Position numbers and translations under genes: made by a program | In this document: positions 5,402 through 18,671 of the stretch, in pieces | Numbering within the stretch: position 1 is the first letter of the stretch | How the letters are laid out: each line of letters begins with the position of its first letter | Source: Hippopus hippopus | Lineage: Eukaryota > Mollusca > Bivalvia > Cardiida > Cardiidae | Length of the DNA stretch: 64,000 bases | Assembly (NCBI GenBank): GCA_946811185.2 | Contig: OX328112.1 | Coordinates: 25,991,742-26,055,741 of the forward strand | Direction of reading: 5' to 3' | The notes under the pieces: generated by a model | What the model saw: the letters and a program-made list of their open reading frames with translations, nothing else | What the model was told of the DNA's origin: nothing | Database searches by the model: none

Positions 5402-5436
5402 CTCTTTCGTGTGGAATGGTAGCCCTGAAAAGGGCT
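5402..5436 (-). terminator. Histone-type 3' processing signal (left 101-aa gene)
   Basis: On the minus strand: stem AGCCCT, loop TTTC, stem AGGGCT (5436-5421), then ACCA and CACGAAAGAG (5411-5402) as histone downstream element. It starts 20 nt past the stop codon of the 101-aa gene. The layout equals that of replication-dependent histone mRNAs, with an A-U instead of G-C first pair. Confidence 0.85.
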
Positions 5437-5456
5437 GTTTGTGGAGATTGTGTTTT

Positions 5457-5762
5457 TTAGGCACAACCTCCAACTTTTCTGCAGGCTGGACAGCTGCTTG
5501 CTGTCCGCCTCCTTAGCCTCCTCAATCCCATCTCGTCCAGGTTAAAGTTTAGCGTGAACGCCGGCTCATCGTCGTCATCCCAGCATTCCGTCACTGGGAT
5601 GACAAACTCCTTCTTTTCGTTAGCTATCGCCAATGGTGGTGATGGTAGTCTTTTATCCTCACCCATTATCTTCTCGATTTGACCGTTTACTCTCTCTAAT
5701 TTTAATGAGAGGGTGGATACCGCTCTCATTAAGTTTTGAACTGATTTTCGGAGATCTTCCAT
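5457..5762 (-). CDS. Small coiled-coil protein with C-terminal CPAC...GC motif, left copy (101 aa)
   Basis: Unrecognised family. Residues 1-35 form an amphipathic, coiled-coil-like helix beginning MEDLRKSVQNLMRAV. The middle has an acidic WDDDDEP patch and the C-terminus reads SCPACRKVGGCA, a compact cysteine cluster that may bind zinc. The 114-aa neighbour ends the same way (ACPICHANFGCCH), so the two may be distant paralogues. The ATG follows a TATAAAAG (5793-5800, minus strand) by about 30 nt, giving a very short leader. The right TIR carries the same gene, identical except for a five-residue patch near residue 79 (EMGLR here, DQQIK there). An open frame in both copies argues for a real gene. 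Confidence 0.72.
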   Translation of the reverse strand: MEDLRKSVQNLMRAVSTLSLKLERVNGQIEKIMGEDKRLPSPPLAIANEKKEFVIPVTECWDDDDEPAFTLNFNLDEMGLRRLRRRTASSCPACRKVGGCA

Positions 5763-5792
5763 CGTTCAATTGAATAGTGGAAAAATCGTCGG

Positions 5793-5945
5793 CTTTTATA
5801 AGCTGATGGGAGGATTGACCTACTTTGGTTCAGAATTAACGGTGACCAATCAAAATGTGTAATGATATAACGAACGAATCGATTGGACACCGTTAATTCT
5901 ATGTCAAAGTAGGTCAATCCTCTCGTCAGAACTAGGATTGACCTA
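5793..5945 (-). promoter_or_regulatory. Promoter module of the 101-aa gene, left
   Basis: Reading toward the gene: TAGGTCA-type half-sites (5939-5945, 5910-5916 and 5816-5822), an opposed CCAAT pair (ATTGG 5882-5886, CCAAT 5846-5850) about 30 bp apart, a GTTAATTCTGA motif, and TATAAAAG at 5793-5800. The same order recurs before the other arm genes. CCAAT plus TATA is typical of histone promoters, and AAAGTAGGTCA fits the monomeric ROR/REV-ERB site pattern. Factor assignments are inference. Confidence 0.7.
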
Positions 5946-6429
5946 CTTTGATTCAGAATTAAGAGCTCGTTCCCGGGCGAAAGCACCCTCGATGAAGAGG
6001 GGGTTTAAACGCTATGTGTTATTAAGTGTAACTCATAGAGGTAGAAATGCTAAAAAATTTGAAAAGAATAATCTTTCAGAATTAACGTTTTTGACCAATC
6101 AGAAGCTTCGTTGCTTTAATGTTGCCCAATCAGAAGCTTCGTTATATTTCTTTGTGTGAGTAAAAAAACTAGAAGGAGAAGATTCGTGTTATGCACATGA
6201 GTTTGGACTTAGTCTTTTTTTGATATGGAATACAGTGTGATTTTAATGCCCACACTGTCTCTGGTCAAGAGGGTTGGGAATAGACTTTTTTTGTCTGGTT
6301 AGAGTAAAAAATTTGCAGTGGGACTGTGGACTTAGGCTTTTTTGAGTATAACTCTTAGAGTGTAACTCATTGATTGAAAGTCTTAGAGTGTATCTCTTTT
6401 AGAGGAAATTGACAATTTGAAAAGAAAGA
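5946..6429. repeat. TIR spacer repeated three times in the element
   Basis: Present here, in the right TIR (17644-18110) and in part again at 16435-16720. Holds GAGGGTGCTTTCGCCCGGGA-type sequence, GATTGGTCAAAAACG, an AATACAGTGTGATTTT block and short GAGTTACACTCT/CTTAGAGTGTA palindromic words. A 73-codon open frame runs through it, but it has no promoter or 3' signal of its own. Confidence 0.6.
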
Positions 6430-6465
6430 TCTTTTCGTGGTGTTGGGTTAGCCCTGAAAAGGGCT
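6430..6465 (-). terminator. Histone-type 3' processing signal (114-aa gene)
   Basis: Minus strand: perfect AGCCCT-TTTC-AGGGCT stem-loop (6465-6450), then AACCCA and CACGAAAAGA (6439-6430). It begins about 30 nt after the TAA of the 114-aa gene. The right-TIR partner at 17608 has a G-U pair in the stem. Confidence 0.83.
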
Positions 6466-6494
6466 GTTTTTCTGTGTTGGAATGTTTTGCAGCT

Positions 6495-6839
6495 TTAATG
6501 ACAACATCCAAAATTTGCGTGGCAGATTGGACATGCTCCGACTCTTTTCGTGATTGTCATTGCTCCATTATTAAAAGTAATCCGTCTCCTGAATTCCACA
6601 TCAACCAAGATAACGTCAGGTGCTGTCTCTAGAACTAGTTCGACTATTTTCTCACCAAGATCTACGTATGTGCGTGATATTTGTTCTAGTTGTATTCTAT
6701 TCTCTTCAATCCTGTTCTTTAGTATCAGTACTTGATCACCACCAATCAGAAAGACTCGGAGAGCCTCAATAAGTCGATGATTTATTTGGTCCATTTTTTC
6801 GTTAACACTTAACCGTGCTATTCGAGAGCTGAGTGTCAA
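6495..6839 (-). CDS. Small helical protein with C-terminal CPIC...CCH motif (114 aa)
   Basis: No family recognised. Residues 1-75 are predicted mostly helical with heptad-like leucine/isoleucine spacing (LIEALRVFLIGGDQVLILKN, then IEENRIQLEQ). A beta-like stretch follows (PDVILVDVEFRRRITF), and the chain ends ACPICHANFGCCH, a cysteine cluster shared in form with the 101-aa TIR protein. TATAAA at 6871-6876 (minus) sits about 30 nt before the ATG. It is the first unique gene inside the left TIR, whose boundary falls exactly on its stop codon. Role unknown; possibly structural or regulatory. Confidence 0.7.
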   Translation of the reverse strand: MTLSSRIARLSVNEKMDQINHRLIEALRVFLIGGDQVLILKNRIEENRIQLEQISRTYVDLGEKIVELVLETAPDVILVDVEFRRRITFNNGAMTITKRVGACPICHANFGCCH

Positions 6840-6870
6840 ATGATTTATTATTTGGAAAAAATCGACGACT

Positions 6871-6898
6871 TTTATACGTTTACAGTGGGATTGACCTA
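6871..6898 (-). promoter_or_regulatory. Short promoter of the 114-aa gene
   Basis: TATAAA (6871-6876, minus strand) with a TAGGTCA half-site just upstream (6892-6898). The CCAAT pair of the full module is missing here, so this is a reduced form of the arm promoter. Confidence 0.55.
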
Positions 6899-7084
6899 CT
6901 TTGACTTAGAATTAAGAGCGCGAACCTGGTAGAAAGCACCCTGAGTAAAGTTCTGAGAAAAAATAGCTTAATGCATACATATGTGGAAAATTCTCTTTAG
7001 AACAGATCTATTTTGAATGAAGTAGAAAAAAGCATTCATTTGACCTAGACAAAAGTGAAAAATTAGAAGGCTTTTCTGAGTGTA

Positions 7085-7150
7085 ACTCTAAGAGTGAAAG
7101 TCTTTTGACTGAAAGTCTTTTGACTGAAAGTCGTTTGACTAAAAATTCAC
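7085..7150. repeat. Short tandem repeat CTGAAAGTCTTTTGA
   Basis: Several copies of a ~15-bp unit, GACTGAAAGTCTTTT. The same word family (GTCAAAAGACTTTCAGTC) lies past the stem-loop/HDE of other arm genes, for example 8068-8100, 14465-14500, 15315-15365 and 16335-16385. Its regular place just after the 3' signal suggests it belongs to a 3'-flank module. Confidence 0.6.
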
Positions 7151-7170
7151 AAAATTTGAGGAAAGATAGA

Positions 7171-7205
7171 TCTTTTCGTGGTGTTGGGTAGCCCTGAAAA
7201 GGGCT
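7171..7205 (-). terminator. Histone-type 3' processing signal (broken 47-codon gene)
   Basis: Minus strand: perfect AGCCCT-TTTC-AGGGCT (7205-7190), ACCCA, then CACGAAAAGA (7180-7171). It lies about 22 nt past the stop of the small broken gene at 7227-7367, which is the main reason to accept that gene as real. Confidence 0.82.
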
Positions 7206-7226
7206 GTTTGTACAGGTTCACTTTTT

Positions 7227-7367
7227 TTAACCTCTTCTCTTTATTCTCCTATTTTCCATCGCATTTATTACTTGGAATAGATGCTCAACTTCACGCCTTA
7301 TACGTCTAAGGCGTTCTCTTTCTTCTATCCAGTACAGTTATGTAAGTAAAATTGTCAGTCCAAACAT
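7227..7367 (-). pseudogene. Small basic helical protein, interrupted by an in-frame stop
   Basis: An ATG (7365-7367) lies about 64 nt after a minus-strand TATAAAA (7431-7437). Codon 10 is TAA (7338-7340). The same frame then stays open for 36 codons to a TAA at 7227-7229, coding a highly charged, coiled-coil-like tail (IEERERLRRIRREVEHLF then NRRIKRRG). A histone-type stem-loop follows the second stop. The layout (TATA, ATG, coding, stem-loop) is that of the other arm genes, so I read this as a gene with a nonsense change. Readthrough or a short intron cannot be excluded. Confidence 0.5.
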
Positions 7368-7430
7368 TGTGCTGATTTGGTTTTAACTCTACAGCAGCTG
7401 AGTTCCGAATGAATGTGTTTTGCGATTGTC

Positions 7431-7630
7431 TTTTATAGTCTACAGAGCTATAAAAATAGTGACTACAAAGTATTTTAACTATGATCACTGAGAATAGTGT
7501 TTTGCATAGAGGAAAATGCAGTTGGGTTAACGTTGACCAATCAAAATGTGTAATGATATAACGGACGATTCGATTGGACAAACGTTAATTCTGAGTCAAA
7601 GTAGGTCAATCCCCCTGCAAACGTATAAAA
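7431..7630. promoter_or_regulatory. Divergent arm promoter
   Basis: Serves the broken gene leftward (TATAAAA 7431-7437, minus) and the 99-aa gene rightward (TATAAAA 7624-7630). Between them are CCAAT (7537-7541), ATTGG (7573-7577), GTTAATTCTGA, and TAGGTCA (7602-7608). It matches the module at 14841-14984, which likewise drives a Lys/Glu-rich paralogue on one side. Confidence 0.65.
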
Positions 7631-7669
7631 AACGAACTTTTTTTATTATCGGGTTATTTTCATTTCACA

Positions 7670-7969
7670 ATGAAAGCCAACAAATTCTTCTGTGGGTTAT
7701 TTGGAAAGCCAAAGGTTGAGGAGGAGAAAAAGAAAGAGATGGAGGAGAAGATAGAGATGGAGAAGAAAAGAGAAGAAGAAAGAAAGAGGCTAAAGTTTAA
7801 GGCACTGTGTGCTTTTTTTGAGAGGCGGGGGTACGAGTTTTATACTCGTACCCCAAAGGTGAAGATGGGGAACATTTATCCCGACCTGAGGGATTTCATG
7901 CCACCCACTGAGCATCGTGGGTGGCAAAAGAAGCTGCAAAAGATGTATCCTTCACTGGTATGGAATTAA
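7670..7969 (+). CDS. Lys/Glu-rich coiled-coil protein (99 aa)
   Basis: Begins MKANKFFCGLFGKPK, then a long charged helix of alternating Glu/Lys (residues ~17-45) and a more globular tail with GYEFYTRTPKVK and PSLVWN. The minus-strand gene at 14594-14800 has the same plan (MKDNKTFSKCFGRRK plus charged helix, then LCEFLKRQGLEF against LCAFFERRGYEF here), so the two are inverted paralogues sitting next to the inner inverted repeat on each side. TATA is 40 nt before the ATG and a histone-type stem-loop starts 30 nt after the stop. Function unknown. Confidence 0.72.
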   Translation: MKANKFFCGLFGKPKVEEEKKKEMEEKIEMEKKREEERKRLKFKALCAFFERRGYEFYTRTPKVKMGNIYPDLRDFMPPTEHRGWQKKLQKMYPSLVWN

Positions 7970-7998
7970 TTTATCCAGCCAGTGAATGGAGAAAAAAC

Positions 7999-8033
7999 AG
8001 CCCTTTTCAGGGCTACCATTCCCCAAGAAAGAG
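7999..8033 (+). terminator. Histone-type 3' processing signal (99-aa gene)
   Basis: Perfect AGCCCT-TTTC-AGGGCT stem-loop (7999-8014), ACCA, then CAAGAAAGAG (8024-8033). The CAAGAAAGA word equals the sea-urchin-type histone downstream element as I remember it, at the right spacing. Confidence 0.87.
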
Positions 8034-8134
8034 CTTTTCTTTCGAATTGTCAATTTTTTCTCTCAAAAGACTTATAGTCAAAAGACTAACAGTCAGAAGA
8101 AAAAAAGTCAAGCCCAGAATTATTTCATATGTTT

Positions 8135-8140
8135 TTTATT
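8135..8140 (-). terminator. Poly(A) signal AATAAA in the inner repeat (minus strand)
   Basis: AATAAA read on the minus strand, about 195 nt past the stop of the 284-aa zinc-knuckle gene. It is the mirror of the plus-strand AATAAA at 14422. Confidence 0.5.
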
Positions 8141-8318
8141 CAAACAATTTTGTACAATGAAACAAGACATGAACTGTGAAAAAACATTGGAATGAAAAAC
8201 AATATCTGTTAAAAACATTGGAATGAAAACATTTAAACAAGTCAACCTTTTTTTGTTAAAACATTTTTTTTAAAAAAACTTAAAACAATATTTTGCAACA
8301 GTTTTTCAACAACCACTT

Positions 8319-8324
8319 TTTATT
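8319..8324 (-). terminator. Poly(A) signal of the zinc-knuckle gene
   Basis: AATAAA on the minus strand 10 nt past the TGA stop at 8334-8336. No histone-type stem-loop follows this gene, unlike all arm genes. Confidence 0.6.
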
Positions 8325-8333
8325 GAAACTTTT

Positions 8334-9188
8334 TCAGTGTGTTTTTCTTTTTTTCTTTGGAATGTCAGATTCACATTCACTCTTTCGTTTTCTTTCCCTT
8401 TCATTATTTTTTAATACCATTTCTGGACAGATTTTATCCCCATGTTTTTTTTGATTTGCAAAAGAAACACTTCTTATTTTTCTCGCTTTCTCTTTTTTCG
8501 CTGTTTTGCTTTTTTTCTCCTGTTTTGGTGAAAGAGTCTCCTCTGAAGAAAGTTCGTTGTTTTTCAGTTCCAAAGTTGATTGTTTTCTTAGATTATCGTT
8601 TGTAGATATTTTTTTCTCTATCTGTTCTGTTATTTTATAGATCTCTGTATCGCTGATAGTCGTGTTGTCGATCTGCATATTTTCGATCTGATTTTCAGTC
8701 GATGATGTTGTAGTCTGTGGTGAGCTTGTTTTCCATTTATTTTCGTTGCAGAATGATTTCAGAACACCAACGAATTTCATGTTCTGAAATTCACCACAAA
8801 ATCCCATTGTTGGTGAAATTTTGATATCATGACTGCGTGGGTTCACATAGACAAAAACGACTGTTTCTGTCTGCTTTTCTTTTCCTGGACAATTTCTAGC
8901 CCAGTGTCCTTGTTTGTTGCATGTAAAACAAATATCTTTTCTCTTTCCATCCGGTTCATATCGTTTTTTGATCGTTGATTGATCCAAAACTCTGTATCTG
9001 GTAATACGGTAAACGTCTTTTTCCGTTACATGTTGATGGGATAAAAATGATCCCACGTAGTTCCCGATATGTTGAAGTTGATACCTTAACGGAACATTGC
9101 AGATCTCGTAATCGTGGGTGTATGGGTTAACGTACAGATACATCATCTTTCCTTTCAGTGATGTATTTTGTAGCTTAAACTCGCTCAT
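8334..9188 (-). CDS. Zinc-knuckle (CCHC) protein (284 aa)
   Basis: Residues ~86-100 read CFTCNKQGHWARNCPG, a CX2CX4HX4C zinc knuckle as in nucleic-acid-binding Gag-like and CNBP-like proteins. The protein has an internal repeat: YLYVNPYTHDYEI near residue 17 and FVYVNPRSHDIKI near residue 112 share YVNPxxHDxxI. The second half is Ser/Thr/Asn-rich and then strongly basic, ending PKKKRKTH, a likely nuclear localisation signal. Transcribed away from the polymerase side from a divergent TATA promoter. It may bind single-stranded DNA or RNA during replication (inference). The frame is intact, unlike its divergent partner. Confidence 0.75.
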   Translation of the reverse strand: MSEFKLQNTSLKGKMMYLYVNPYTHDYEICNVPLRYQLQHIGNYVGSFLSHQHVTEKDVYRITRYRVLDQSTIKKRYEPDGKRKDICFTCNKQGHWARNCPGKEKQTETVVFVYVNPRSHDIKISPTMGFCGEFQNMKFVGVLKSFCNENKWKTSSPQTTTSSTENQIENMQIDNTTISDTEIYKITEQIEKKISTNDNLRKQSTLELKNNELSSEETLSPKQEKKSKTAKKEKARKIRSVSFANQKKHGDKICPEMVLKNNERERKRKSECESDIPKKKRKTH

Positions 9189-9257
9189 TATTTTTTATCA
9201 ACTGTACTGTGTGAAGTTGATCAGAAGAATGATATAGATTTCGTAGCTATCGTCTCT

Positions 9258-9292
9258 ATTTATACACTATCGAGCTGAAAGGCTCTATAAAA
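9258..9292. promoter_or_regulatory. Divergent core promoter
   Basis: TATAAATA on the minus strand (9258-9265) for the zinc-knuckle gene, and TATAAAA on the plus strand (9286-9292) for the gene starting at 9344. No CCAAT pair or TAGGTCA site is present, so this promoter differs in kind from those of the arms. Confidence 0.6.
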
Positions 9293-9343
9293 TGCCAAGT
9301 TTTCTGACTTACCGTGTCATTGTTTTACATTCAGACATAAACG

Positions 9344-9915
9344 ATGGGTAAAAGAAAAAGAATAGTACCCTATTTAGACAGCGAAAGTGACGATGAGTCA
9401 TTTTCACCACCAAAAAAAAAAAATGAAATAAAGAAGAAAGTGACAGTGCAGACGATGTCTCTTCACAAAAGAAAAAACCTGTAAAAATGATCGTAGAAAG
9501 TAACAGTGAAGATAATATCTCCTCGAAAAAAATGAACGTGAAAAGTGACAGTGAAGATGAAACACCTAAGAAAAAAACGATCATAAAAAGTGAAGATAAT
9601 ATCTCCTCGAAAAAAATGAACGTGAAAAGTGAAAGTGAAGATAAAACATCTAAGAAAAAAACGATCATAAAAAGTGAAAGTGAAGATGATATCTCCTCGA
9701 AAAAATTGATTGAGGACCAAAAAGAAGAAAGTAACAACACTACTTTAGACATGACAAGTCTGTATGACTTAACGGAGAAGGGAAAAAAGAAATCGAGGAA
9801 ATTTAGAACAGAATCACATCTGTTGATGGCGTCTTTAAAGAAATTTGAACAATTACCACCCCATCAACTGATCGGATTATTTGATGAGTTACCCATCAAA
9901 TCATTCAAAAGTTAA
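9344..9915 (+). pseudogene. Ser/Asp/Lys repeat protein, frameshifted
   Basis: The ATG at 9344 follows TATAAAA by 52 nt and opens MGKRKRIVPYLDSESDDES. The reading frame then changes between about 9412 and 9440, next to a 12-A run and an AAGAAGAAA stretch. From 9427 another frame carries on to the TAA at 9913-9915. It consists of near-repeats of SEDNISSKKMNVKS and SEDKTSKKKTIIKS type, with casein-kinase-2-like acidic serine sites, then a tail with LLMASLKKFEQLPPHQL. The original product would be a charged, probably disordered nuclear protein. The indel could also be a homopolymer sequencing error. No family recognised. Confidence 0.55.
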
Positions 9916-9932: not shown

Positions 9933-12900
9933 ATGATTAGAATTAGTATCAACCATCCTTCATTGAAAATAGGGATTCATATTCCCTTTCTACCTACAGA
10001 ACAGCTGAAAGGCGAAACTATGTTAAATGAGATTGAACGAGTTTTACAATCGAATACAGATTTCGTCTTGAACGATGGATTCATGACATTTGACATTACA
10101 CATACAATACCTCCAAGTGGTAACGGGAGAAAAAGATCATCAGAATTGGATTCAAAGGTTTTTTCCCGGAAGAAAAAATCAATTATTCAAATTAACAATC
10201 ATGATCACCTATGTTTTGCAAGAGCAGTTGTGGTGGGCATTTGCTACAGTGAACGTGAAAACACCAAAGCATGGTATAGAAGATGGTCATGCATCAGAAA
10301 ATCAGATAGAATACTTCAAAAGACTGAAGCTGAGAAACTGTTGAATGAAGCTGGAGTTTCGCCAACCCGGTCTGTAGGAAATGACAAATACAAAAAAAAA
10401 TCCAATCTTTCTTGTATGAAAAGGGCTATGTCATTAAAGTTCATCAACAGCATTCAAAAGTGGAAAAAGTATTTGAACACTCAGAAGTGAAAGACGATAG
10501 TAAAATCATACATTTGTACTTTCATCAAAACCACTATGATTACATCAAATCCATTGCAGGTTTTCTTAGTTGTGCAATTTATTGTGAGTTCTGTGATGTG
10601 GGATACTCGTCACGGGAAAGTCATACATGTTCAAATATCTGTAAAGGTTGTTTTCGCAAAGGAAAATGTGCATCAGAATCAAAAGAATATGTTTGCAGTG
10701 GGTGTCATAGACGATTTTTCAGTGCTGCGTGGTTGGCAAATCATAGAATTGTTCAAGGTAAAGAAAAGAAATCCATTTTCGAATTAGTAAAACTCTGTTT
10801 AAAATGTGGTCAACAATATTATCTCAGAAAGAAAAATCATATCTGCCATGGAAAGAAAAAGTGTCATATCTGCAAGAAAATTGTTGACTTTTCTCATCGA
10901 TGTTATATTCAGCCTTAACCAAAGTAAGACAAACACCGATGACAAGACGAGTTCTTCTGTAGTCAAAAAACCATTGTTCATTTTCTTTGATTTTGAATGC
11001 AAACAAGACACAGGGATACATACTGTATTGCGCACAGAGCATGTGATGAATGTATCGATAAACCACTTGATTTTCATTGTTCCACATGCAGTGAATTTGA
11101 AGAAGGAAGAGAAGTTATTTTTCAAGGTGAGGAAACTTTGAGTCAATTTTGCAACTGGCTCTTTTCAGAACATCATAAAGGAGTCACGGCTATTGCGCAT
11201 AATTTCAAAGGCTATGACGGACAGTTTATTCTTGACTATATTATCAAAGTTGGGCTAAAACTTCCAAATTTGATCATGAATGGCAATAACATTATGAAGT
11301 TAGAACTGAATGAAGTGCTATTGATCGATTCTTTTAATTTTATGAACTTAGGTTTGGCAAAATTTCCAGCTACATTTGGTCTTCAAGAAATGAAAAAAGG
11401 TTACTTCCCTCACTGGGCAAATACAGATGAATTCTGGGGTTACATTGGTCCCTACTTGGACATGTCTTATTACAAGCCCGATTCAATGTCTGAAGAGGCC
11501 AGGTCAAATTTCATAGTCTGGTATAATGATAAAGTTCAAAGGGATGAGGAATTCAATTTTCAAAAAGAGATGGAAATGTACTGTAGATCAGATGTTGATA
11601 TCCTAAGACGAGGTTGTGGTGAATTCAGAAAGGTGTTTATTGAACAGGGTGGCATTTGCCCATTTCTAGAGGCGGTTACCATTGCCGATGCGTGTATAAA
11701 GGTTTGGCGAAGCAAATATTTGCCTGAAAATCAAATAGCTATCATTTCAAGTAAAGATTCATCCAGACGTCGCTTTTCCATGAAAGCAATACGCTGGATC
11801 CAGAGCGTAGCTATGGAAAAAGGAATCAATATTCGCCATGCAAAAAATGGTGGTGAAGTTCAGATCAAGAAATACAGTGTAGACGGATTTCACCGTCAAT
11901 CAAAACTGTCTACGAATTCCTTGGGGATTTGTTTCATGGCTGTCCCGTATGTTATACAGATCGAAAACAGATCAATCCCATCAATGGAAGATCGATGTCT
12001 GAATTGTACGAACGTACTTTTGAACGTTTAGGAGCTATCCAAAAAATGGGATATAACGTAGAGTTCATATGGGAACTTGAATTCGATGCTAAGATGAAGA
12101 AGGATAAAGAGTACAAAAAACTCATTGAAAACCTGTATCCAAATTGGGATCCCATCGATCCAAGGGAGGGGTTGTCTGGAGGAAGGTGTAATGCAATAAA
12201 AATTGCCTATGATGTCAAGGAAAAAAGTAAAAAGGAAATCAAATACATTGATATTTGTTCTCTGTACCCTTATGTTTGCAAACACAAATCTTATCCTGTA
12301 GGTCAACCAAAAATCTTAACTGCTGAGAATATTGACGTGAAGAATATTCGTCAGTATGAAGGAATAATTAAATGCAAAGTTTTACCTCCAGATCATTTGT
12401 TTCATCCCGTTCTCCCAGTTCACTGTAACAACAAAATGATGTTTCCACTCTGTATGAAATGCGCAGAAGAAAATTCGAACATTTGTAGACATAACAAAGA
12501 AGAGAGGGCTTTGATAGGAACTTGGGTTACTTTTGAACTGTTCAAAGCTCTTGACTGTGGTTATCGGCTATTGCAAGTGTATGAAATTTGGCAATTCGAT
12601 TCTGTGTCGGATCAGTTCTTTAAAGGCTATGTGGATAATTTCTTGAAAATTAAGCAAGAAGCTAGCGGATATCCCAGTTGGTGTCAATCAGATTCAGAAA
12701 AAGAACAGTTTATTCGTGAATATGAGGAGGCAGAAGGTATTCGTCTTGATCTAAGTTGTATTCAAAAAAATCCTGGGAGAAGATCCTTTGCTAAGATTAT
12801 GTTGAACTGTCTTTGGGGAAAATTAGCCCAGCGTGAAAAAATGACCCAGACGGAATACATCAACGATCCGTCTAAATATTTTGAATTGGTCACCAATCCA

Positions 12901-13521
12901 AATTTCATTGTGAAGCATGTAGAAATCTTTGACGATGACTGTCCATTCATCTTGGTCAACTACGAAACAAAGTTGGAACATATTGATACTCACGCTACAG
13001 CCAATGTTATTGTAGGAGCCGACGTAACAGCTTATGCAAGGCTGGAATTGTACAGCGTTCTTGAAAAGTTAAAGGATACAGTTCTGTATTTCGATACAGA
13101 TAGTTGCATGTACATTCATGATCCTGAATTATGGAACCCTCCCATTATTAACAGCAGACTAGGAAAATGGACTGAAGAAGAGCCTGATTGTAAAATCACT
13201 CATTTCAGAGGACTAGGACCAAAGAATTATGCTTACAAAATGAAAACAAAAGATGGAAAAGTGAAAAGCAAATGTAAAGTGAAGGGAATTACTTTGGATT
13301 ACAATACAAGTCAGGTGGTGAATTTCGATACATATTCAAAATGTGCTTTGAGTCGCACTACAGAAATCAAAATTGAATATGATTGTAGAATCAAAAGACA
13401 TAGAGATAGAACGGTCACCAGTGAACCGCAAACAAAAATGTTTCGTTCTGTATACACCAAGAGAGTTATTGTAAATGATACTGACACTGTACCCTATGGC
13501 TATAAAACGTTGAGAAGATAA
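9933..13521 (+). pseudogene. Polinton-type DNA polymerase B, multiple frameshifts
   Basis: DNA-replicating family-B polymerase of the protein-primed, virus-like type. In order: an N-terminal region with NNHDHLCFARAVVVG (~10193-10240), a cysteine/histidine zinc-finger cluster (CEFC, CSGCH, CLKCG, CHICKK; ~10580-10905), and exonuclease motifs FFDFEC (~10983-11000), AHNFKGYDGQF (~11197-11230) and YCRSDVDIL (~11578-11605). Polymerase motifs follow: A DICSLYP (~12250), B KIMLNCLWGK (~12796) and C FDTDS (13090-13104). Catalytic residues are present, but the frame changes at least four times: in an A9 run near 10391, between about 10880 and 10915, near 11025, and near 11890-11905. The copy is inactive unless some indels are assembly errors. 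It starts 17 nt after the preceding stop. Confidence 0.9.
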
Positions 13522-13525
13522 TTCC

Positions 13526-14242
13526 ATGTTACATTGTTTTGAACTGAACGGTCCGAGTAAGACGCAAAATAATATCACTGAAAAAATTATGCTGCCTTTA
13601 CCAATAGAACTACGTGAAAAGATTTATGGAGAATTCGTTCAACAGCATACGCTCGATGAACAAACGCAACTTTACATTAAATTCGGCTGTGTGAAACTTT
13701 GGATAGATAAATTGCACAAAGGTTTTGCAAAAGGAGATCAGTCCTGCAAGTTGTATGCTATACACAACTTTATTGCTATGATGGTAGACGATTCGGATTT
13801 AGATTTCGTTCTCAAAGCTTATTTAGCCTCTTATTGGTGGAAAGACGGTGCTACCGGTAAACAAATCCGATCCACAAGTCGCTGGTGCTTTATTATCATA
13901 GGAAGAACAGAAGAAAGCTTTCTGAACGTTCTGAAAATGAAATCAGTTTTATTTAACTTTTACGTACGCTACAAAAGAGGATTTATTCAAAACGATGAGG
14001 AAATAGTGGATACCTTGGAAGGCTATATTTTATTTGATAGAGATGTTACAGAAGAAAGTGTATATTCATCCCTTTCAACAAAAGGCGTTACAAAACATGT
14101 TTTTCCATTTAGAGGAATACGTGAATTCAGAGAGATGAACAGTGAATATCAATTGTATTTGGGTAATGAGCAATTGCATACAGTTATTATGGAACATGAA
14201 GACAAATGGAAAACTCGGGGCATTTGTGAATTTGCATTGTGA
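13526..14242 (+). CDS. Unknown 238-aa core protein
   Basis: Starts 4 nt after the polymerase stop (an internal ATG at 13589 is the alternative start). No family recognised. The segment MLPLPIELREKIYGEFV resembles the opening of an F-box (LPxEL...I), but this is too weak to assign. The middle is Trp/Tyr/Phe-rich and helical (LASYWWKD, SRWCFIIIG, FNFYVRYKRGF). The close spacing implies co-transcription with the polymerase. The 3' region has AATAAA at 14422 and no stem-loop. The coding end and its flank contain two ATTTGCAT octamers (14230-14237, 14243-14250). Confidence 0.6.
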   Translation: MLHCFELNGPSKTQNNITEKIMLPLPIELREKIYGEFVQQHTLDEQTQLYIKFGCVKLWIDKLHKGFAKGDQSCKLYAIHNFIAMMVDDSDLDFVLKAYLASYWWKDGATGKQIRSTSRWCFIIIGRTEESFLNVLKMKSVLFNFYVRYKRGFIQNDEEIVDTLEGYILFDRDVTEESVYSSLSTKGVTKHVFPFRGIREFREMNSEYQLYLGNEQLHTVIMEHEDKWKTRGICEFAL

Positions 14243-14427: not shown

Positions 14428-14528
14428 AAACATATGAAATAATTCTGGGCTTGACTTTTTTTCTTCTGACTGTAAGTCTTTTGACTGTAAGTCTTTTGAG
14501 AGAAAAAAATGACAATTCGAAAGAAAAG

Positions 14529-14563
14529 CTCTTTCTTGGGGAATGGTAGCCCTGAAAAGGGCT
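14529..14563 (-). terminator. Histone-type 3' processing signal (68-aa Lys/Glu-rich gene)
   Basis: Minus strand: perfect AGCCCT-TTTC-AGGGCT (14563-14548), ACCA, CAAGAAAGAG (14538-14529). It starts about 30 nt past the gene's stop. Confidence 0.86.
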
Positions 14564-14593
14564 GTTTTTTCTCCATTCACTGGATGGTTAAAA

Positions 14594-14800
14594 TTAATTC
14601 CGTACCAGTGACATGAAGTCGGGCGAAAACTCAAGCCCTTGCCTCTTTAAAAACTCGCAGAGAGTTTTCATCTTCGCTGCCTCTTCTCTTCTTGCTTCTT
14701 TTTCTCTTTTCTCCCGATCTGGCTTCTCCTCCATCTCTCTCTTCATCATTTCGCCCTTTCTCCTTCCAAAACACTTGCTAAATGTTTTATTGTCTTTCAT
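14594..14800 (-). CDS. Lys/Glu-rich coiled-coil protein (68 aa)
   Basis: Paralogue of the 99-aa protein at 7670: MKDNKTFSKCFGRRK start, a charged helix of Glu/Arg/Lys at residues ~15-43, then KTLCEFLKRQGLEFSPDF. It is shorter, ending SLVRN where the relative continues for another 30 residues. TATAAA is 41 nt before the ATG (14841-14846, minus). It faces the core across the inner repeat, mirroring its relative. Function unknown. Confidence 0.7.
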   Translation of the reverse strand: MKDNKTFSKCFGRRKGEMMKREMEEKPDREKREKEARREEAAKMKTLCEFLKRQGLEFSPDFMSLVRN

Positions 14801-14840
14801 TGTGAAATGAAAAATAATCCGATCATAAAAAAAGTTCGTT

Positions 14841-14984
14841 TTTATACGTTGACGGGAGGATTGACCTACTTTGACTCAGAATTAACGTTATCCAATCAAA
14901 ATGTGTAATGATATAACGAACGATTCGATTGGGCGACGTTAATTCTATGTCGAAGTAGGTCAATCCACCCTGCAAGCTATAAAA
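14841..14984. promoter_or_regulatory. Divergent arm promoter, right
   Basis: Leftward TATAAA (14841-14846) and rightward TATAAAA (14978-14984) frame two TAGGTCA half-sites in opposite orientation (14862-14868 as TGACCTA, 14956-14962), CCAAT (14892-14896) and ATTGG (14928-14932). This is the most complete symmetrical example of the arm promoter. Confidence 0.7.
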
Positions 14985-15022
14985 TTCCGATGTTTTATAC
15001 ATCAAATCATTATCGTTCCATC

Positions 15023-15229
15023 ATGGTACAGATACTTCTCTGTCCGATGTGCGGTAGCAGATGCTATATAGAATGCGGAAAATGCCTTACTATTCTGGAC
15101 TGTCTTGGCCAGAAGCATAACTGTCCTGATCCTGATGAGGGATTCTATGACTATGATGAAAGCTCGGCAGTATGCTGTGAATACTGTGGATGTGAAATCA
15201 TCCCAGTAAATCGTTTAGAAGAGCAGTAG
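15023..15229 (+). CDS. Cysteine-rich zinc-binding protein, paralogue 1 (68 aa)
   Basis: Start chosen at 15023 because it lies about 45 nt after TATAAAA (14978); the upstream in-frame ATG at 14990 is too close to the TATA box to be in the mRNA. Pattern: CPMC, then CYIECGKC, CLGQKHNC, then CCEYCGC, giving enough Cys/His pairs for two small zinc sites. An acidic DPDEGFYDYDES link sits between. Paralogue 2 at 16043 has the same start and spacing. Ribbon-like, possibly nucleic-acid- or protein-binding; no named family. Confidence 0.72.
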   Translation: MVQILLCPMCGSRCYIECGKCLTILDCLGQKHNCPDPDEGFYDYDESSAVCCEYCGCEIIPVNRLEEQ

Positions 15230-15255
15230 TCTTGATAGATGAATACTCGAAAAAT

Positions 15256-15290
15256 AGCCCTTTTCAGGGATAACCAACACCACGAAAAGA
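15256..15290 (+). terminator. Histone-type 3' processing signal, one stem mismatch (zinc paralogue 1)
   Basis: AGCCCT-TTTC-AGGGAT (15256-15271): the fifth base of the 3' arm is A instead of C, breaking one pair. Then AACCA and CACGAAAAGA (15281-15290). Starts 27 nt past the stop. It is the weakest of the ten copies. Confidence 0.7.
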
Positions 15291-15560
15291 TCTTTCTTTT
15301 CAAATTTGTCAATTTTCAGTCAAAAGACTTTCAGTCAAAGAGTTACACTCTAAGAGTTATACTCCAAAAAAAACCTAAGGCCACAGCCACTGCAATTTTT
15401 GCTCTAACCAGACAAAAAAGTCTATTCCCAACCCTTTTTGAGCAGAGACAGTGTGGGTATCAAAAAATCACACTGTATTCCATACCAAAAAAAGTCAAAA
15501 GCATAAACCCTCTCTTCTATCATTTCTGATTTATCAATTGTTTTTTGGATAAAAAAATGT
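15291..15560. repeat. Spacer module (3' flank type)
   Basis: Contains the GTCAAAAGACTTTCAGTC words, GAGTTACACTCT, CTAACCAGACAAAAAAG and CACACTGTATTCCATA also seen in the TIR spacers at 6160-6400 and 17650-17920. No gene seen. Confidence 0.55.
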
Positions 15561-15744
15561 AACGAACGTTCTGATTCGACAAAGTTAAAGCAACGAACCT
15601 TCTGATTGGTCAAAAACGTTAATTCTGAATCAAAACTAGGACTGATGGGAGTTTTTCGACGAATAGGTCCAACTCTGCATATTTTTTTGAGTTGATTTCT
15701 TTTAAAAACAGCCCTTTTCAGGGCTACCCAACACCAAGAAAGAG
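15561..15744 (+). pseudogene. Orphan promoter relic and stem-loop; gene body apparently lost
   Basis: An ATTGG box (15604-15608) with GTTAATTCTGAATCAAAAC at 15617-15635 is followed, with almost no coding sequence, by a perfect histone-type stem-loop (15710-15725), ACCCA and CAAGAAAGAG (15735-15744). Only a 16-codon frame (from about 15642) lies between. Every other stem-loop follows a gene, so this looks like an arm gene deleted between its promoter and its 3' end. Confidence 0.5.
15710..15744 (+). terminator. Histone-type 3' processing signal, orphan
   Basis: Perfect stem AGCCCT/AGGGCT with TTTC loop, flank ACCCA exactly as in canonical histone genes, then CAAGAAAGAG. It has the best overall match of the ten, although no gene precedes it. 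Confidence 0.85.
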
Positions 15745-15913
15745 TGATCTTTCCCCAAATTTGTCAATTTCCTCTAAGAGTTACAATCAATCAGTTACAG
15801 TCAAAAAAGAGGTCCTTTGCATCAACTCTCTAGCTAAATCTTTCTCCAAAGAACAAAATCGTTCCTCAGACTAAGTCAAACAGTAAGTTTTGAGTAAGAA
15901 AAAACCCATCTCT

Positions 15914-16005
15914 CCAATAAAACTAAAGATATAACGAGCTTTTTGATTGGACAACGTTAATTCTGAGTCAAAAGTAGGTCAATCCATCCAGCAAAACTAT
16001 AAAAA
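15914..16005 (+). promoter_or_regulatory. Promoter of zinc paralogue 2
   Basis: CCAAT (15914-15918), ATTGG (15946-15950), GTTAATTCTGA, TAGGTCA (15975-15981) and TATAAAAA (15998-16005), then ATG at 16043. Confidence 0.65.
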
Positions 16006-16042
16006 GTTAATGTTTTATACATCAAATCATATTCGTTCCACT

Positions 16043-16249
16043 ATGGTTCAGATACTTATTTGCCCTTTGTGTGCTCAAGCATGCGACATAGAGTGTGGGA
16101 AATGTACATTTCCCCTACAGTATCTTGGACAAAAGCACAACTGTCCAAATCCTGATGAGGGATTTTATGATGAAGACGATGACCCAGAGGTTTGGTGCGA
16201 ATATTGCTGGCGAGAGATCAGACCTGTAGATTATACAGTCGATGAATAG
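16043..16249 (+). CDS. Cysteine-rich zinc-binding protein, paralogue 2 (68 aa)
   Basis: Same plan and length as the gene at 15023: MVQILICPLC start, CDIECGKC, YLGQKHNCPNPDEGFYD, then CEYC. It differs in losing one cysteine in the first loop and in the CCEYCGC segment (here WCEYCWRE). Start set by a TATA box 38 nt upstream. Stem-loop begins 27 nt past the stop. The two genes appear to be a tandem duplication, together with their promoter and 3' modules. Confidence 0.72.
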   Translation: MVQILICPLCAQACDIECGKCTFPLQYLGQKHNCPNPDEGFYDEDDDPEVWCEYCWREIRPVDYTVDE

Positions 16250-16275
16250 CCTTGCCAGACAACAAGACTCAAAAC

Positions 16276-16310
16276 AGCCCTTTTCAGGGCTACCATTCAG
16301 CAAGAAAGAG
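16276..16310 (+). terminator. Histone-type 3' processing signal (zinc paralogue 2)
   Basis: Perfect AGCCCT-TTTC-AGGGCT (16276-16291), ACCA, CAAGAAAGAG (16301-16310). Confidence 0.86.
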
Positions 16311-16434
16311 TGATCTTTCGAATTGTCAATTTTCAGTCAAAAGACTTTCAGTCAAAGAGCTATACTCTAAGAGCTATACTCAAAAAAGTCTAAGTCCAAT
16401 ACCTAGTTTTCTCTTTCAAAATCACACTGTATTC

Positions 16435-16870
16435 CATAAAAAAGACTAAGTCCAAATTTCTGTGCATAACACGAATCTTCTCCTTCTAGTTTTTTACTCA
16501 CATAAAGAAATATAACGAAGCTTCTGATTGGGCAACATTAAAGCAACGAAGCTTCTGATTGGTCAAAAAACGTTAATTCTGAAAGATTATTCTTTTCAAA
16601 TTTTTTAGCATTTCTACCTCTATGAGTTACACTTAATAACACATAGCGTTTAAACCCCCTCTTCATCGAGGGTGCTTTCGCCCGGGAACGAGCTCTTAAT
16701 TCTGAATCAAAGTAGGTCAATCCTAGTTCTGACGAGAGGATTGACCTACTTTGACATAGAATTAACGGTGTCCAATCGATTCGTTCGTTATATCATTACA
16801 CATTTTGATTGGTCACCGTTAATTCTGAACCAAAGTACGTCAATCCTCCCACCAGCTTATAAAAGCCAAC
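16435..16870 (+). repeat. Direct repeat of the TIR promoter block
   Basis: Matches 17850-18285 at a constant offset of 1415 bp and, inverted, the left TIR at about 5790-6230. Includes the full CCAAT/TAGGTCA/TATA module; TATAAAAG is at 16858-16865. The 214-aa gene therefore uses a copy of the 101-aa gene's promoter. Confidence 0.8.
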
Positions 16871-16932
16871 GATATTTTTCTAAATAATAAATTATTTGAC
16901 TCTCAGCTCTCGAATAAAACGCTAACGGAAAA

Positions 16933-17577
16933 ATGGATTTCAACTTAAATGGATTCAACTTGGACGGTTTCGACATAGACGAATTCCTACCAAAAGAAAA
17001 CACTGGAGATATTTTATCATCAGCAATGGATTCAACACTCGTCAACCCAACGACTGCGATAAATACAACACTCATCAACCCAAAGACCATATTGGACGAC
17101 ATTTTTGAAGAAGTAAGACAGCTGAATTCAAAACAAGATTGTGTATTGACTCAGCTTTTAGAAGAACTGAAGACTTTTAACAAGCATTTGGAGGAGATAA
17201 AGACTTTAAACACAAACACTGAACAGCTGAGCAGAAATATTGAGACATTATGTCAACAGAGTAAGCGTGATTCACCTGTTCCTGTGCAGATTCCGGTGAA
17301 AGTCCCGATGGAGTTTGACTTTGATAAAACCAGTCTTCATAAACTAGTAGAGTCAATCGTAACGGTTGTAAAGAAAGAAAAACAACAGCCAAAGGAAAAA
17401 CAGCGAAGAGCAACAAAAAGAAAATCAGAGGAAAGCAATGGGGAACTTCACAAAAAGCAAGGAGTTCTCAACAACTGGGCAATCTCGACAATGACGGGCC
17501 AGGGCAAATACGGAAAAAAGATTGATGACTTCGATGATTTCAAGATCCCGAAAAAACCAAAGAAAAGCTGTCAGTAA
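16933..17577 (+). CDS. Coiled-coil arm protein with basic tail (214 aa)
   Basis: Largest arm protein, with no family recognised. Residues 1-20 are Asn/Leu/Asp/Phe-rich (NLNGFNLDGFDIDEF). Residues ~55-115 form a heptad-patterned coiled coil (ILDDIFEEVRQL, LLEELKTFNKHLEEIKTL). A proline/valine hinge (PVPVQIPVKVPMEF) follows, then a basic stretch KKEKQQPKEKQRRATKRK typical of a nuclear localisation signal, and a lysine-rich C-terminus. TATAAAAG is about 70 nt upstream. The stop codon TAA marks the inner edge of the right TIR. An oligomeric, nuclear, possibly DNA-associated protein is a fair guess, nothing more. Confidence 0.72.
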   Translation: MDFNLNGFNLDGFDIDEFLPKENTGDILSSAMDSTLVNPTTAINTTLINPKTILDDIFEEVRQLNSKQDCVLTQLLEELKTFNKHLEEIKTLNTNTEQLSRNIETLCQQSKRDSPVPVQIPVKVPMEFDFDKTSLHKLVESIVTVVKKEKQQPKEKQRRATKRKSEESNGELHKKQGVLNNWAISTMTGQGKYGKKIDDFDDFKIPKKPKKSCQ

Positions 17578-17607
17578 AAGCTGGAAAACATTCCAACACA
17601 GAAAAAC

Positions 17608-17643
17608 AGCCTTTTTCAGGGCTAACCCAACACCACGAAAAGA
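17608..17643 (+). terminator. Histone-type 3' processing signal with G-U pair (214-aa gene)
   Basis: AGCCTT-TTTC-AGGGCT (17608-17623): the stem is preserved through a U-G wobble. Then AACCCA and CACGAAAAGA (17634-17643). Its left-TIR partner keeps the C-G pair. Confidence 0.8.
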
Positions 17644-18109
17644 TCTTTCTTTTCAAATTGTCAATTTCCTCTAAAAGAGATATACTCTAAGACTTTCAAT
17701 CAATGAGTTACACTCTAAGAGTTATACTCAAAAAAGCCTAAGTCCACAGTCCCACTGCAAATTTTTTACTCTAACCAGACAAAAAAAGTCTATTCCCAAC
17801 CCTCTTGACCAGAGACAGTGTGGGCATTAAAATCACACTGTATTCCATATCAAAAAAAGACTAAGTCCAAACTCATGCGCATAACACGAATCTTCTCCTT
17901 CTAGTTTTTTTACTCACACAAAGAAATATAACGAAGCTTCTGATTGGGCAACATTAAAGCAACGAAGCTTCTGATTGGTCAAAAACGTTAATTCTGAAAG
18001 ATTATTCTTTTCAAATTTTTTAGCATTTCTACCTCTATGAGTTACACTTAATAACACATAGCGTTTAAACCCCCTCTTCATCGAGGGTGCTTTCGCCCGG
18101 GAACGAGCT

Positions 18110-18280
18110 CGTAATTCTGAATCAAAGTAGGTCAATCTTAGTTCTGACGAGAGGATTGACCCACTTTGACATAGAATTAACGGTGTCCAATCGATTCGTT
18201 CGTTATATCATTACACATTTTGATTGGTCACCGTTAATTCTGAACCAAAGTAGGTCAATCCTCCCATCAGCTTATAAAAG
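18110..18280 (+). promoter_or_regulatory. Promoter module of the 101-aa gene, right
   Basis: TAGGTCA (18128-18134) and, near the gene, a second TAGGTCA at about 18251-18257; a diverged TTGACCCAC site between them; CCAAT/ATTGG pair in the 18186-18228 stretch; TATAAAAG 18273-18280, 31 nt before the ATG. Confidence 0.68.
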
Positions 18281-18310
18281 CCGACGATTTTTCCACTATT
18301 CAATTGAACG

Positions 18311-18616
18311 ATGGAAGATCTCCGAAAATCAGTTCAAAACTTAATGAGAGCGGTATCCACCCTCTCATTAAAATTAGAGAGAGTAAACGGTCAAATCGAG
18401 AAGATAATGGGTGAGGATAAAAGACTACCATCACCACCATTAGCGATAGCTAACGAAAAGAAGGAGTTTGTCATCCCAGTGACGGAATGCTGGGATGACG
18501 ACGATGAGCCGGCGTTCACGCTAAACTTTAACCTGGACGACCAACAGATAAAGAGGCTAAGGAGGCGGACAGCAAGCAGCTGTCCAGCCTGCAGAAAAGT
18601 TGGAGGTTGTGCCTAA
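18311..18616 (+). CDS. Small coiled-coil protein with C-terminal CPAC...GC motif, right copy (101 aa)
   Basis: Same gene as 5457-5762 on the opposite strand. Identical through MEDLRKSVQNLMRAV, the WDDDDEP patch and the SCPACRKVGGCA end, but residues 78-82 read as DQQIK in place of EMGLR (18540-18556). That block holds about 11 base changes in 17 bp inside otherwise near-identical sequence. Both versions stay in frame. Two protein variants from one element is either deliberate diversity or a copying patch from a related element. Confidence 0.72.
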   Translation: MEDLRKSVQNLMRAVSTLSLKLERVNGQIEKIMGEDKRLPSPPLAIANEKKEFVIPVTECWDDDDEPAFTLNFNLDDQQIKRLRRRTASSCPACRKVGGCA

Positions 18617-18636
18617 AAAACACAATCTCCACAAAC

Positions 18637-18671
18637 AGCCCTTTTCAGGGCTACCATTCCACACGAAAGAG
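18637..18671 (+). terminator. Histone-type 3' processing signal (right 101-aa gene)
   Basis: Perfect AGCCCT-TTTC-AGGGCT (18637-18652), ACCA, CACGAAAGAG (18662-18671). Confidence 0.86.

What the first reader, a model, noticed from the sequence alone, without database searches (positions are those of the whole stretch)
5402..18671. Polinton-class element whose arm genes end in histone-type stem-loop plus HDE
Seen: ten copies of the 16-nt word AGCCCTTTTCAGGGCT (eight perfect, one with a G-U pair, one with a mismatch). Each lies 20-35 nt after a stop codon (one is orphaned), always in the sense strand, followed by ACCA/ACCCA-like flank and CAAGAAAGAG/CACGAAAGAG about 10 nt later. Known: replication-dependent histone mRNAs end in a 6-bp stem, 4-nt UUUC-type loop, ACCCA and a U7-binding downstream element, bound by SLBP. 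Only the first base pair differs (A-U for G-C). Inference: the element makes non-polyadenylated, S-phase-linked mRNAs using host SLBP/U7 machinery. I recall no description of this in Polintons or other DNA transposons or viruses.
Basis: partly seen in the sequence, partly recalled or inferred. Interest (0 to 1): 0.96.

Follow-up and report, generated by a model that had tools for sequence, protein, structure and literature searches.

The report
Polinton with histone-style gene ends
In what is likely an invertebrate genome, a virus-like mobile element ends its small genes with nearly the same stem-loop and downstream signals that end the host's own histone genes, so its messages would likely be cut by the host's histone machinery instead of getting a poly(A) tail.

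Summary
Ten copies of AGCCCTTTTCAGGGCT (8 exact; chance mean 0.16) lie in a Maverick/Polinton-type element at 4850-19212 with 1.65-kb inverted repeats, AGTAGT//ACTACT ends, 6-bp duplication CATATC and a family-B polymerase; no integrase or capsid was found. Eight of ten follow an arm-gene stop by 20-30 nt; a purine box follows at all ten. Two central genes have AATAAA instead.

Decisive comparison: the host's own H1, H2A, H2B, H3 and H4 genes end in nearly the same layout: stem-loop, purine box near +12 (5 of 6 ends), TTGTCA-like motif near +30 (6 of 6). The outer pair differs: A-U against G-C.

Genome-wide, stem pair 3-14 is C-G 5922, U-A 5001, U.G 580 and C.A 40 times, as an RNA helix predicts. 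The host has SLBP. A separate integrase-bearing contig (L001) ends a small gene in a histone stem-loop above Rfam's cut-off.

Most likely the arm genes make histone-type, poly(A)-less mRNAs with host machinery. Against or open: no RNA tested, U7 not found, six other PolB contigs lack the signal. Literature searches showed no precedent.

The parts
4844..4849 (.). left target-site duplication CATATC
19213..19218 (.). right target-site duplication CATATC
4850..6503 (+). left terminal inverted repeat, begins AGTAGT
   Evidence: 98% identical to the right one over 1656 aligned positions
17569..19212 (-). right terminal inverted repeat, ends ACTACT
5457..5762 (-). arm gene, 101 aa (TIR copy)
5421..5436 (-). 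stem-loop; purine box 10 nt downstream
6495..6794 (-). arm gene, 99 aa
6450..6465 (-). stem-loop; purine box 11 nt downstream
7190..7205 (-). stem-loop, probably after a decayed gene
7670..7969 (+). arm gene, 99 aa
7999..8014 (+). stem-loop; purine box 10 nt downstream
8334..9188 (-). central gene, 284 aa, CCHC zinc knuckle; AATAAA at 8135-8140 on the minus strand, 193 nt after the stop, and another 9 nt after the stop
10997..13521 (+). family-B DNA polymerase (PF03175), read as two overlapping ORFs 10997-12031 and 11929-13521; upstream parts (9891-10918) lie in other frames
13526..14242 (+). central gene, 238 aa, no Pfam match; AATAAA at 14422, 179 nt after the stop
14594..14800 (-). arm gene, 68 aa
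14548..14563 (-). stem-loop; purine box 10 nt downstream
14990..15229 (+). arm gene, 79 aa
15256..15271 (+). stem-loop with its second pair broken; not listed by the Histone3 model
15710..15725 (+). stem-loop, probably after a decayed gene
16010..16249 (+). arm gene, 79 aa, similar to 14990-15229
16276..16291 (+). stem-loop; purine box 10 nt downstream
16933..17577 (+). arm gene, 214 aa
17608..17623 (+). stem-loop with a U.G pair; purine box 11 nt downstream
18311..18616 (+). arm gene, 101 aa (TIR copy)
18637..18652 (+). stem-loop; purine box 10 nt downstream

Best explanation
The ten stem-loops have nearly the layout of the host's own histone gene ends, and most likely act as histone-type mRNA 3' processing signals for the arm genes of a Maverick/Polinton-type element, which host SLBP and U7 snRNP would be expected to recognise. 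Steps. (1) Shown: arm genes end in a 6-bp/4-nt stem-loop with an A-rich 5' flank, an ACC-type 3' flank, a purine box at +12 or +13 and a TTGTCA-like motif at +30 to +37. (2) Shown: the host's H1, H2A, H2B, H3 and H4 genes end in a stem-loop of the same kind with the third motif at +28 to +32 and, in 5 of 6 ends compared, the purine box at +11 or +12; the host genome encodes an SLBP RNA-binding domain. (3) Shown: stem pair 3-14 covaries as an RNA helix across thousands of genomic copies. (4) Inferred: host SLBP binds the stem, U7 snRNP pairs with the purine box, CPSF73 cuts after the ACC flank, and the mRNA has no poly(A) tail. (5) Inferred: arm-gene mRNAs are therefore abundant in S phase and decay when replication stops, which would time arm proteins to the period when element DNA can be copied. 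(6) Inferred: the central genes, polymerase included, use ordinary AATAAA signals, so the element would have two expression classes.
For: Ten sites against a chance mean of 0.16. RF00032 Histone3 lists 9 of 10 sites at 17.9-31.7 bits, eight of them at E 0.0026 or better, 17608+ only at E 1.1; the host's own histone stem-loops score 30.0-35.2 with 4 of 5 per unit below the same cut-off of 34. All ten purine boxes sit 10-11 nt after the stem-loop. Eight of ten are 20-30 nt after an arm-gene stop, in the sense strand. Among one representative of each of seven site classes, mean identity is 0.97 and 0.87 over the two 10-nt blocks that hold the stem-loop against 0.23-0.33 more than 10 nt upstream. 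Host histones: stem-loop 28-39 nt after the stop in units L058-L060 and in L062; 20 H3 and 19 H4 ends in L038-L057 are the same. GA[AG]A[AG] box at +11/12 in 5 of 6 and TTGTCA-like motif at +28..32 in 6 of 6 histone ends compared, against 10 of 10 and 10 of 10 element sites; background rate of ATTGTCA in a 30-nt stretch 0.005, of TTGTCA 0.02. Host SLBP domain in two exons at C11. Covariation: whole genome pair 3-14 C-G 5922, U-A 5001, U.G 580, C.A 40 against 2604 C.A and 3144 U.G expected under independence; A4 alignment of element, host and L001 ends, covariation score reached by 0 of 500 shuffles. 42 of 44 arm-gene matches in five other regions have the stem-loop within 400 nt. Separate Polinton contig L001: 89-aa C2H2 gene, 28 nt, GGCCCTTATCAGGGCC, ACCCCA, AAAAAAGAG; 35.8 bits, above the cut-off. 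Pathway roles of SLBP, HDE, U7 and S phase: passages of PMC7614891 and PMC1924863.
Against: No transcript was examined. No U7 gene was located: RF00066 in the host gave nothing, but it rang in no control genome either, and 35 of 258 candidate places looked at gave no RF00066 match. The outer pair is A-U in the element, whereas all six host histone stem-loops compared are G-C. No element site reaches the Rfam gathering score. One site has a broken pair and two have no gene left. One unit H2A end lacks the purine box, and one histone-matching locus, L061, has no stem-loop. In the A4 test the plain number of covarying pairs (2 of 6) is reached by 29 of 500 shuffles. Six other PolB contigs (L002-L007) have no match to the stem-loop, and the stretches read around four integrase genes of this genome have none either. 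Sampled copies in this genome were chosen by holding the word, so 42 of 44 is not an unbiased rate. Copies are related, so genomic counts are not independent events. L001 lacks the TTGTCA-like motif.
Confidence: 0.83

Rival explanations
1. The module is a captured piece of a host histone 3' region that spread by duplication with the arms and is now mostly a passive repeat or DNA-level site (transcription terminator or protein-binding palindrome), not an RNA processing signal.
For: Similarity runs on for some tens of nt beyond the purine box among site classes, so shared ancestry of the block explains part of the conservation; the element is full of other inverted repeats.
Against: At stem pair 3-14, C-to-U on the 5' arm (U.G in RNA) is found 580 times and G-to-A on the 3' arm (C.A in RNA) 40 times, though in DNA both are the same transition in the same context on opposite strands; the eight sites with a gene are all sense and just after the stop; 5001 fully compensated copies; L001 has another sequence with the same fold.
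Confidence: 0.1
2. The stem-loop binds SLBP but serves translation, stability or replication control of transcripts that are still polyadenylated downstream (dual 3' ends, as reported for some histone genes).
For: AWTAAA words occur downstream of 5 of 10 sites, 206-356 nt from the stem-loop; C. elegans histone genes carry both hairpin and AATAAA (PMC1924863, passages); polyadenylated histone H2B mRNAs are reported (PMC3661734, start of abstract seen in the listing).
Against: The purine box, the cleavage-directing part in known histone genes, is kept at 10 of 10 sites; 5 of 10 sites have no AWTAAA within 400 nt downstream.
Confidence: 0.12
3. Convergent chance: GC-rich short hairpins after stop codons with no link to histones.
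For: Short hairpins are common in genomes (general knowledge).
Against: Loop UUUC, U-A closing pair, second G-C pair, A-rich and ACC flanks, purine box and third motif match the host's histone genes at similar offsets; shuffles give 0.16 sites.
Confidence: 0.01

Closest known systems
Replication-dependent histone mRNA 3' end (Rfam RF00032 Histone3; SLBP/U7 pathway)
   Same: 6-bp stem, UUUC loop, U-A closing pair, A-rich 5' flank, ACC-type 3' flank, purine HDE about 12 nt later, position 20-40 nt after the stop; in this host also the TTGTCA-like motif
   Different: Attached to non-histone genes of a mobile element; outer pair A-U, not G-C: GGCCCTTTTCAGGGCC occurs twice in the genome against 5922 for the element word; pyrimidine run able to pair with the HDE at all ten sites
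Maverick/Polinton elements
   Same: TIRs, (AGT)2//(ACT)2 ends and 6-bp target-site duplication as described in PMC8097293 (passages); family-B polymerase, the feature called defining in PMC4046053 (passages)
   Different: No integrase, capsid or protease found in this copy; arms of four (left) and six (right) short gene units with TATA-like boxes; histone-type gene ends
Adintoviruses
   Same: PolB related at 43% to Rhodactis coral adintovirus PolB
   Different: No hexon-like or integrase match; PMC11071296 (passages) defines adintoviruses by PolB with an OTU-like domain and hexon, and the terms stem-loop and polyadenyl do not occur in it
Potato spindle tuber viroid loop 27
   Same: Loop modelled on the histone stem-loop (PMC6827988, passages)
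   Different: Plant RNA; the paper reports no SLBP homologue in its hosts and no extended stem; not a gene end

Membership tests
Replication-dependent histone-type 3' end | 6-bp stem with 4-nt loop, U-A closing pair and second G-C pair | tested here: met
   9 of 10 sites (15256+ has the second pair broken)
Replication-dependent histone-type 3' end | score above the Rfam RF00032 gathering cut-off (34 bits) | tested here: not met
   best element site 31.7; 4 of 5 host histone ends per unit also fall below; L001 reaches 35.8
Replication-dependent histone-type 3' end | purine-rich downstream element at the usual distance | tested here: met
   10 of 10 in the window; 62 of 70 sites in sampled stretches of C1
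Replication-dependent histone-type 3' end | stem maintained as RNA (covariation) | tested here: met
   copies are related, no tree correction
Replication-dependent histone-type 3' end | host SLBP present | tested here: met
   PF15247 over its cut-off in two pieces, C11
Replication-dependent histone-type 3' end | host U7 snRNA present and complementary | tested here: inconclusive
Replication-dependent histone-type 3' end | mature mRNA ends after the stem-loop without poly(A) | not testable with these tools
   no RNA data held
Maverick/Polinton | self-encoded family-B (protein-primed type) DNA polymerase | tested here: met
   PF03175 in two ORFs, relatives; frames are split and protein priming itself was not tested
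Maverick/Polinton | TIRs, (AGT)2//(ACT)2 ends, 6-bp target-site duplication | tested here: met
Maverick/Polinton | rve integrase with chromodomain | tested here: not met
   no tblastn hit of the L001, L003 or L004 integrase in the window at E 0.01; 109 scored matches elsewhere in the genome
Maverick/Polinton | capsid proteins, protease, packaging ATPase | tested here: not met
   no hit of L001 capsid- and protease-like proteins or of other L003/L004 ORFs of 80 aa or more, no such Pfam match in the ten ORFs scanned; a diverged copy cannot be excluded
Adintovirus | hexon and integrase beside PolB | tested here: not met
   same queries

The most novel reading that the evidence does not exclude
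This lineage has a three-part histone-type gene end that is not in the textbook form: stem-loop, purine box, then a pyrimidine run plus TTGTCAA about 30 nt on. That tail has the order of the 5' half of U7 snRNA (recalled: CUCUUUU then AAUUUGUCUAG), so pre-mRNAs of histones and of the element's many gene copies may carry a U7-like half in cis, pairing with their own purine box and loading an Lsm10/Lsm11-type ring without, or beside, a trans-acting U7. A mobile element would then have taken over a whole alternative S-phase mRNA class, its copies marked by an A-U outer pair.
Probability: 0.07. Interest if true: 0.97.

Novelty: new variant of a known kind. Interest (0 to 1): 0.93.

Why it matters
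Histone-type 3' ends are taught as the private mark of replication-dependent histone genes. A mobile element that puts them on most of its own genes, in a genome holding three forms of the word in more than eleven thousand places, would be a new expression strategy for a transposon or virus-like element, a natural mutational scan of SLBP substrates on one host background, a way to tie element protein supply to S phase, and a possible drain on host SLBP/U7. It also points to a third downstream motif in this host's histone genes.

Tried and rejected
Rejected: chance; the arm genes being histone relics (three of the eight arm ORFs were scanned in Pfam and none matched a histone family; the others were not scanned); element-encoded SLBP (the two SLBP-domain matches in the genome both lie at C11). 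IMG/VR scans with the exact word, the polymerase, a polymerase alignment, a histone-stem pattern and the arm-protein alignment gave no related element; the 12 hits all lie inside open frames of more than 80 aa and by eye lack A-rich flank and purine box. The 89-aa zinc-finger gene of L001 has only weak, generic-looking zinc-finger matches in the host (best 44%). AlphaFold of the 101-aa arm protein gave an N-terminal and a C-terminal helix with pTM 0.31; not pursued. U7 hunt failed. No unbiased sample of element copies was obtained: protein searches of the genome with arm genes were not run, and the RF00032 search of the whole genome did not complete.
Full report
WHAT IS THERE. The word AGCCCTTTTCAGGGCT occurs ten times between 5421 and 18652 (8 exact, 2 with one change), against a chance mean of 0.16 for up to three mismatches. 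All ten lie in one element at 4850-19212. Its ends read AGTAGT...ACTACT and are flanked by the direct repeat CATATC; the terminal inverted repeats are 98% identical over 1656 aligned positions, which points to a fairly young insertion. This matches the end motif (AGT)2//(ACT)2 and 6-bp duplications described for vertebrate Mavericks (PMC8097293, passages seen). The centre holds a family-B DNA polymerase (PF03175) whose reading frame is broken into overlapping ORFs, a 284-aa protein with a CCHC knuckle, and a 238-aa protein without a Pfam match. Proteins of three related contigs (L001, L003, L004), integrase, capsid-like and protease-like ones included, found nothing but polymerase in the window.

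ARM GENES AND THEIR ENDS. Around the centre lie eight short ORFs (68-214 aa). By the coordinates of those calls each has a TATAAA word 38-82 nt before its start codon (for the two 79-aa genes I count from the second ATG; a reading, not a test). Each is followed after 20-30 nt by the stem-loop in the sense strand. Two further stem-loops (7190-, 15710+) follow only 10- and 16-aa ORFs; other copies have ORFs of 46 and 95 aa ending at what look like the same places. At all ten sites a purine box comes 10-11 nt after the stem-loop. Single-strand folding gives the expected six-pair hairpin at 9 of 10 sites, -9.0 kcal/mol for the exact word and -6.3 for 17608+; 15256+ keeps only four pairs. Two central genes, the CCHC and the 238-aa gene, instead have AATAAA 193 and 179 nt after their stops; within 400 nt they meet the convergent arm gene's stem-loop only in antisense (loop GAAA in their own strand). 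Taking one representative of each of seven site classes (TIR and inner-repeat duplicates dropped), mean pairwise identity is 0.97 and 0.87 over the two 10-nt blocks holding the stem-loop, 0.59 in the ten bases before it, 0.23-0.33 further upstream, and falls from 0.58 to background by about 70 nt downstream: one 3' module joined to unrelated genes.

THE HOST'S HISTONE GENES. The window's assembly (G000, 1.07 Gb, 34 contigs) became searchable. Histone genes form a tandem array on C15. In three units and one outlying gene (L058-L060, L062) H3, H4, H2B, H2A and H1 end in GGCCCTTTTAAGGGCC, GGCCCTTATCAGGGCC, GGTCCTTTTCAGGACC or GGCCCTTTTCAGGGCC, 28-39 nt after the stop; one further locus with histone matches, L061, shows no stem-loop. 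Laid side by side, histone and element ends share an AAC- or AAA-like 5' flank, a GAAAR/GAGAG box at +11 to +13 (5 of 6 histone ends, the unit H2A gene being the miss; 10 of 10 element sites) and a TTGTCA-like motif at +28 to +32 in histones (6 of 6; AGTGTCA in H2B) and +30 to +37 in the element (10 of 10; 7 ATTGTCA, 2 TTTGTCA, 1 TTGTGAA). The host encodes the SLBP RNA-binding domain. Among animal-named relatives of the host's H1 the best are from Capitella, Haliotis, Dreissena and Liolophura, so the host is probably a lophotrochozoan; the record has no name.

RNA-LEVEL SELECTION. In sampled stretches of C1, 12 of 15 two-mismatch sites are compensated (AGTCC..GGACT 8, AGCTC..GAGCT 4); all 12 lie in two neighbouring clusters at 2.16-2.35 Mb, partly in tandem repeats, so they are few events. 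Whole-genome counts for stem pair 3-14 are C-G 5922, U-A 5001, U.G 580 and C.A 40 (where the reversed control word itself gives 13). Independence would give about 2604 C.A and 3144 U.G. C3-to-T and G14-to-A are the same transition in the same GCC context on opposite DNA strands, so the 580 to 40 split is what an RNA helix predicts and a DNA palindrome does not. The caveat is descent: copies share ancestors, so these are not independent events, and a founder with U.G could inflate 580. A 17-sequence alignment (15 distinct) of element, host and L001 ends has two of six pairs changed on both sides; 0 of 500 shuffles reach its covariation score, but 29 of 500 reach the plain count of two pairs. 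The G-C version of the element word, GGCCCTTTTCAGGGCC, occurs twice in the genome, one of them the outlying H2A gene: the A-U outer pair is an element mark.

RELATED ELEMENTS. In five other regions of C1 (L028-L037, chosen because they held the word), 42 of 44 arm-gene matches have the stem-loop within 400 nt at up to two mismatches, 36 exact; the two misses are a 20-aa fragment and a match cut by the end of the stretch. Outside this genome, seven contigs with related polymerases were found among GTDB assemblies, evidently eukaryotic DNA binned with bacteria. One, L001, with polymerase, rve integrase (chromodomain match below its cut-off) and TBP, has an 89-aa C2H2 gene followed after 28 nt by GGCCCTTATCAGGGCC, ACCCCA and AAAAAAGAG, 35.8 bits in Rfam, above the cut-off of 34. 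Its host is unknown; a polymerase fragment beside one integrase gene of G000 is 65% identical to L001's, so the two hosts may be related. The other six contigs show no stem-loop; they are partial (4-13 kb) and show no inverted repeat, so their arms may be missing. Integrase genes of L001's type are numerous in G000 (109 scored, a lower bound), so mobilisation of the window's family in trans is possible; 4 kb around four of them, plus 2.2 kb beside one, show a TBP gene in three but no histone-type stem-loop. The two listed integrase genes on C1 that lie inside the range where the stem-loop list is complete have no listed stem-loop within 100 kb.

MECHANISM. Known: SLBP binds the stem-loop, U7 snRNP pairs with the downstream element, CPSF73 cuts, and SLBP rises before S phase (PMC7614891, passages; PMC1924863, passages). 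The element presents nearly what the host's own histone genes present, so use of that machinery is the simplest inference. That arm mRNAs lack poly(A) and are tied to S phase is inferred, not shown. U7 was not found: RF00066 gave nothing but rang nowhere in the controls, and a U7-like word gave 258 places against 170 for its control with no RF00066 match in the 35 loci looked at.

AN UNEXPLAINED EXTRA. At all ten element sites the purine box can pair with a pyrimidine run just downstream (z from -1.1 to -5.5, at 7190- only -1.0 kcal/mol, so weak at several sites), followed by the TTGTCA-like motif. L001 lacks both. The host histone ends were not folded for this. It may hold the purine box shut until SLBP binds, or be a U7-like half in cis; I rate the latter low.

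LITERATURE. Ten searches of an open-licence library were run. Those on the point (the first two with no paper at all, the others 4 to 14 papers, of which I saw the listing) showed no report of histone-type ends on Polintons, other transposons or animal DNA viruses; the rest were for background. The nearest are a viroid loop shaped like the histone loop and a herpesvirus paper where the terms meet only in its reference list. Subscription journals are mostly missing, so this is not proof of novelty.

Noticed in passing
L058 1375-6430, L062 760-821; window 5384-18690: A TTGTCA-like motif about 30 nt after the stem-loop is shared by host histone genes and element arm genes; no name known to me.
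   Followed up: partly
window 8015-8051 and the nine corresponding stretches: The purine box can fold onto a pyrimidine run just downstream at all ten element sites.
   Followed up: partly
L020, L021, L022, L026 (G000 C1 2.16-2.35 Mb): A second subfamily has two stem-loops in tandem, 8 nt apart, with different compensated stems, before one purine box.
   Followed up: partly
L001 7189-7695; L100 3013-3540; L101; L103: TATA-binding-protein-like genes sit beside integrase genes in Polinton-type elements.
   Followed up: no
window 5781-5950, 14840-14984, 16738-16877, 18147-18292: Repeated long hairpins with CCAAT-like words lie upstream of arm-gene TATA boxes; Rfam sees them only as miRNA-like matches far below cut-off.
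   Followed up: no
window 18311-18616 and its eight relatives (alignment A2): The 101-aa arm protein and most of its relatives keep a WDDDDEPxF-like stretch and a C-terminal CPACxKxGGC.
   Followed up: partly
L001-L007: Polinton-type contigs are binned in bacterial assemblies (Bacteroidia, Photobacterium, Limnohabitans, Epulopiscium).
   Followed up: no
window 33628-33713: A tRNA match just over the cut-off (29.5 against 29 bits).
   Followed up: no
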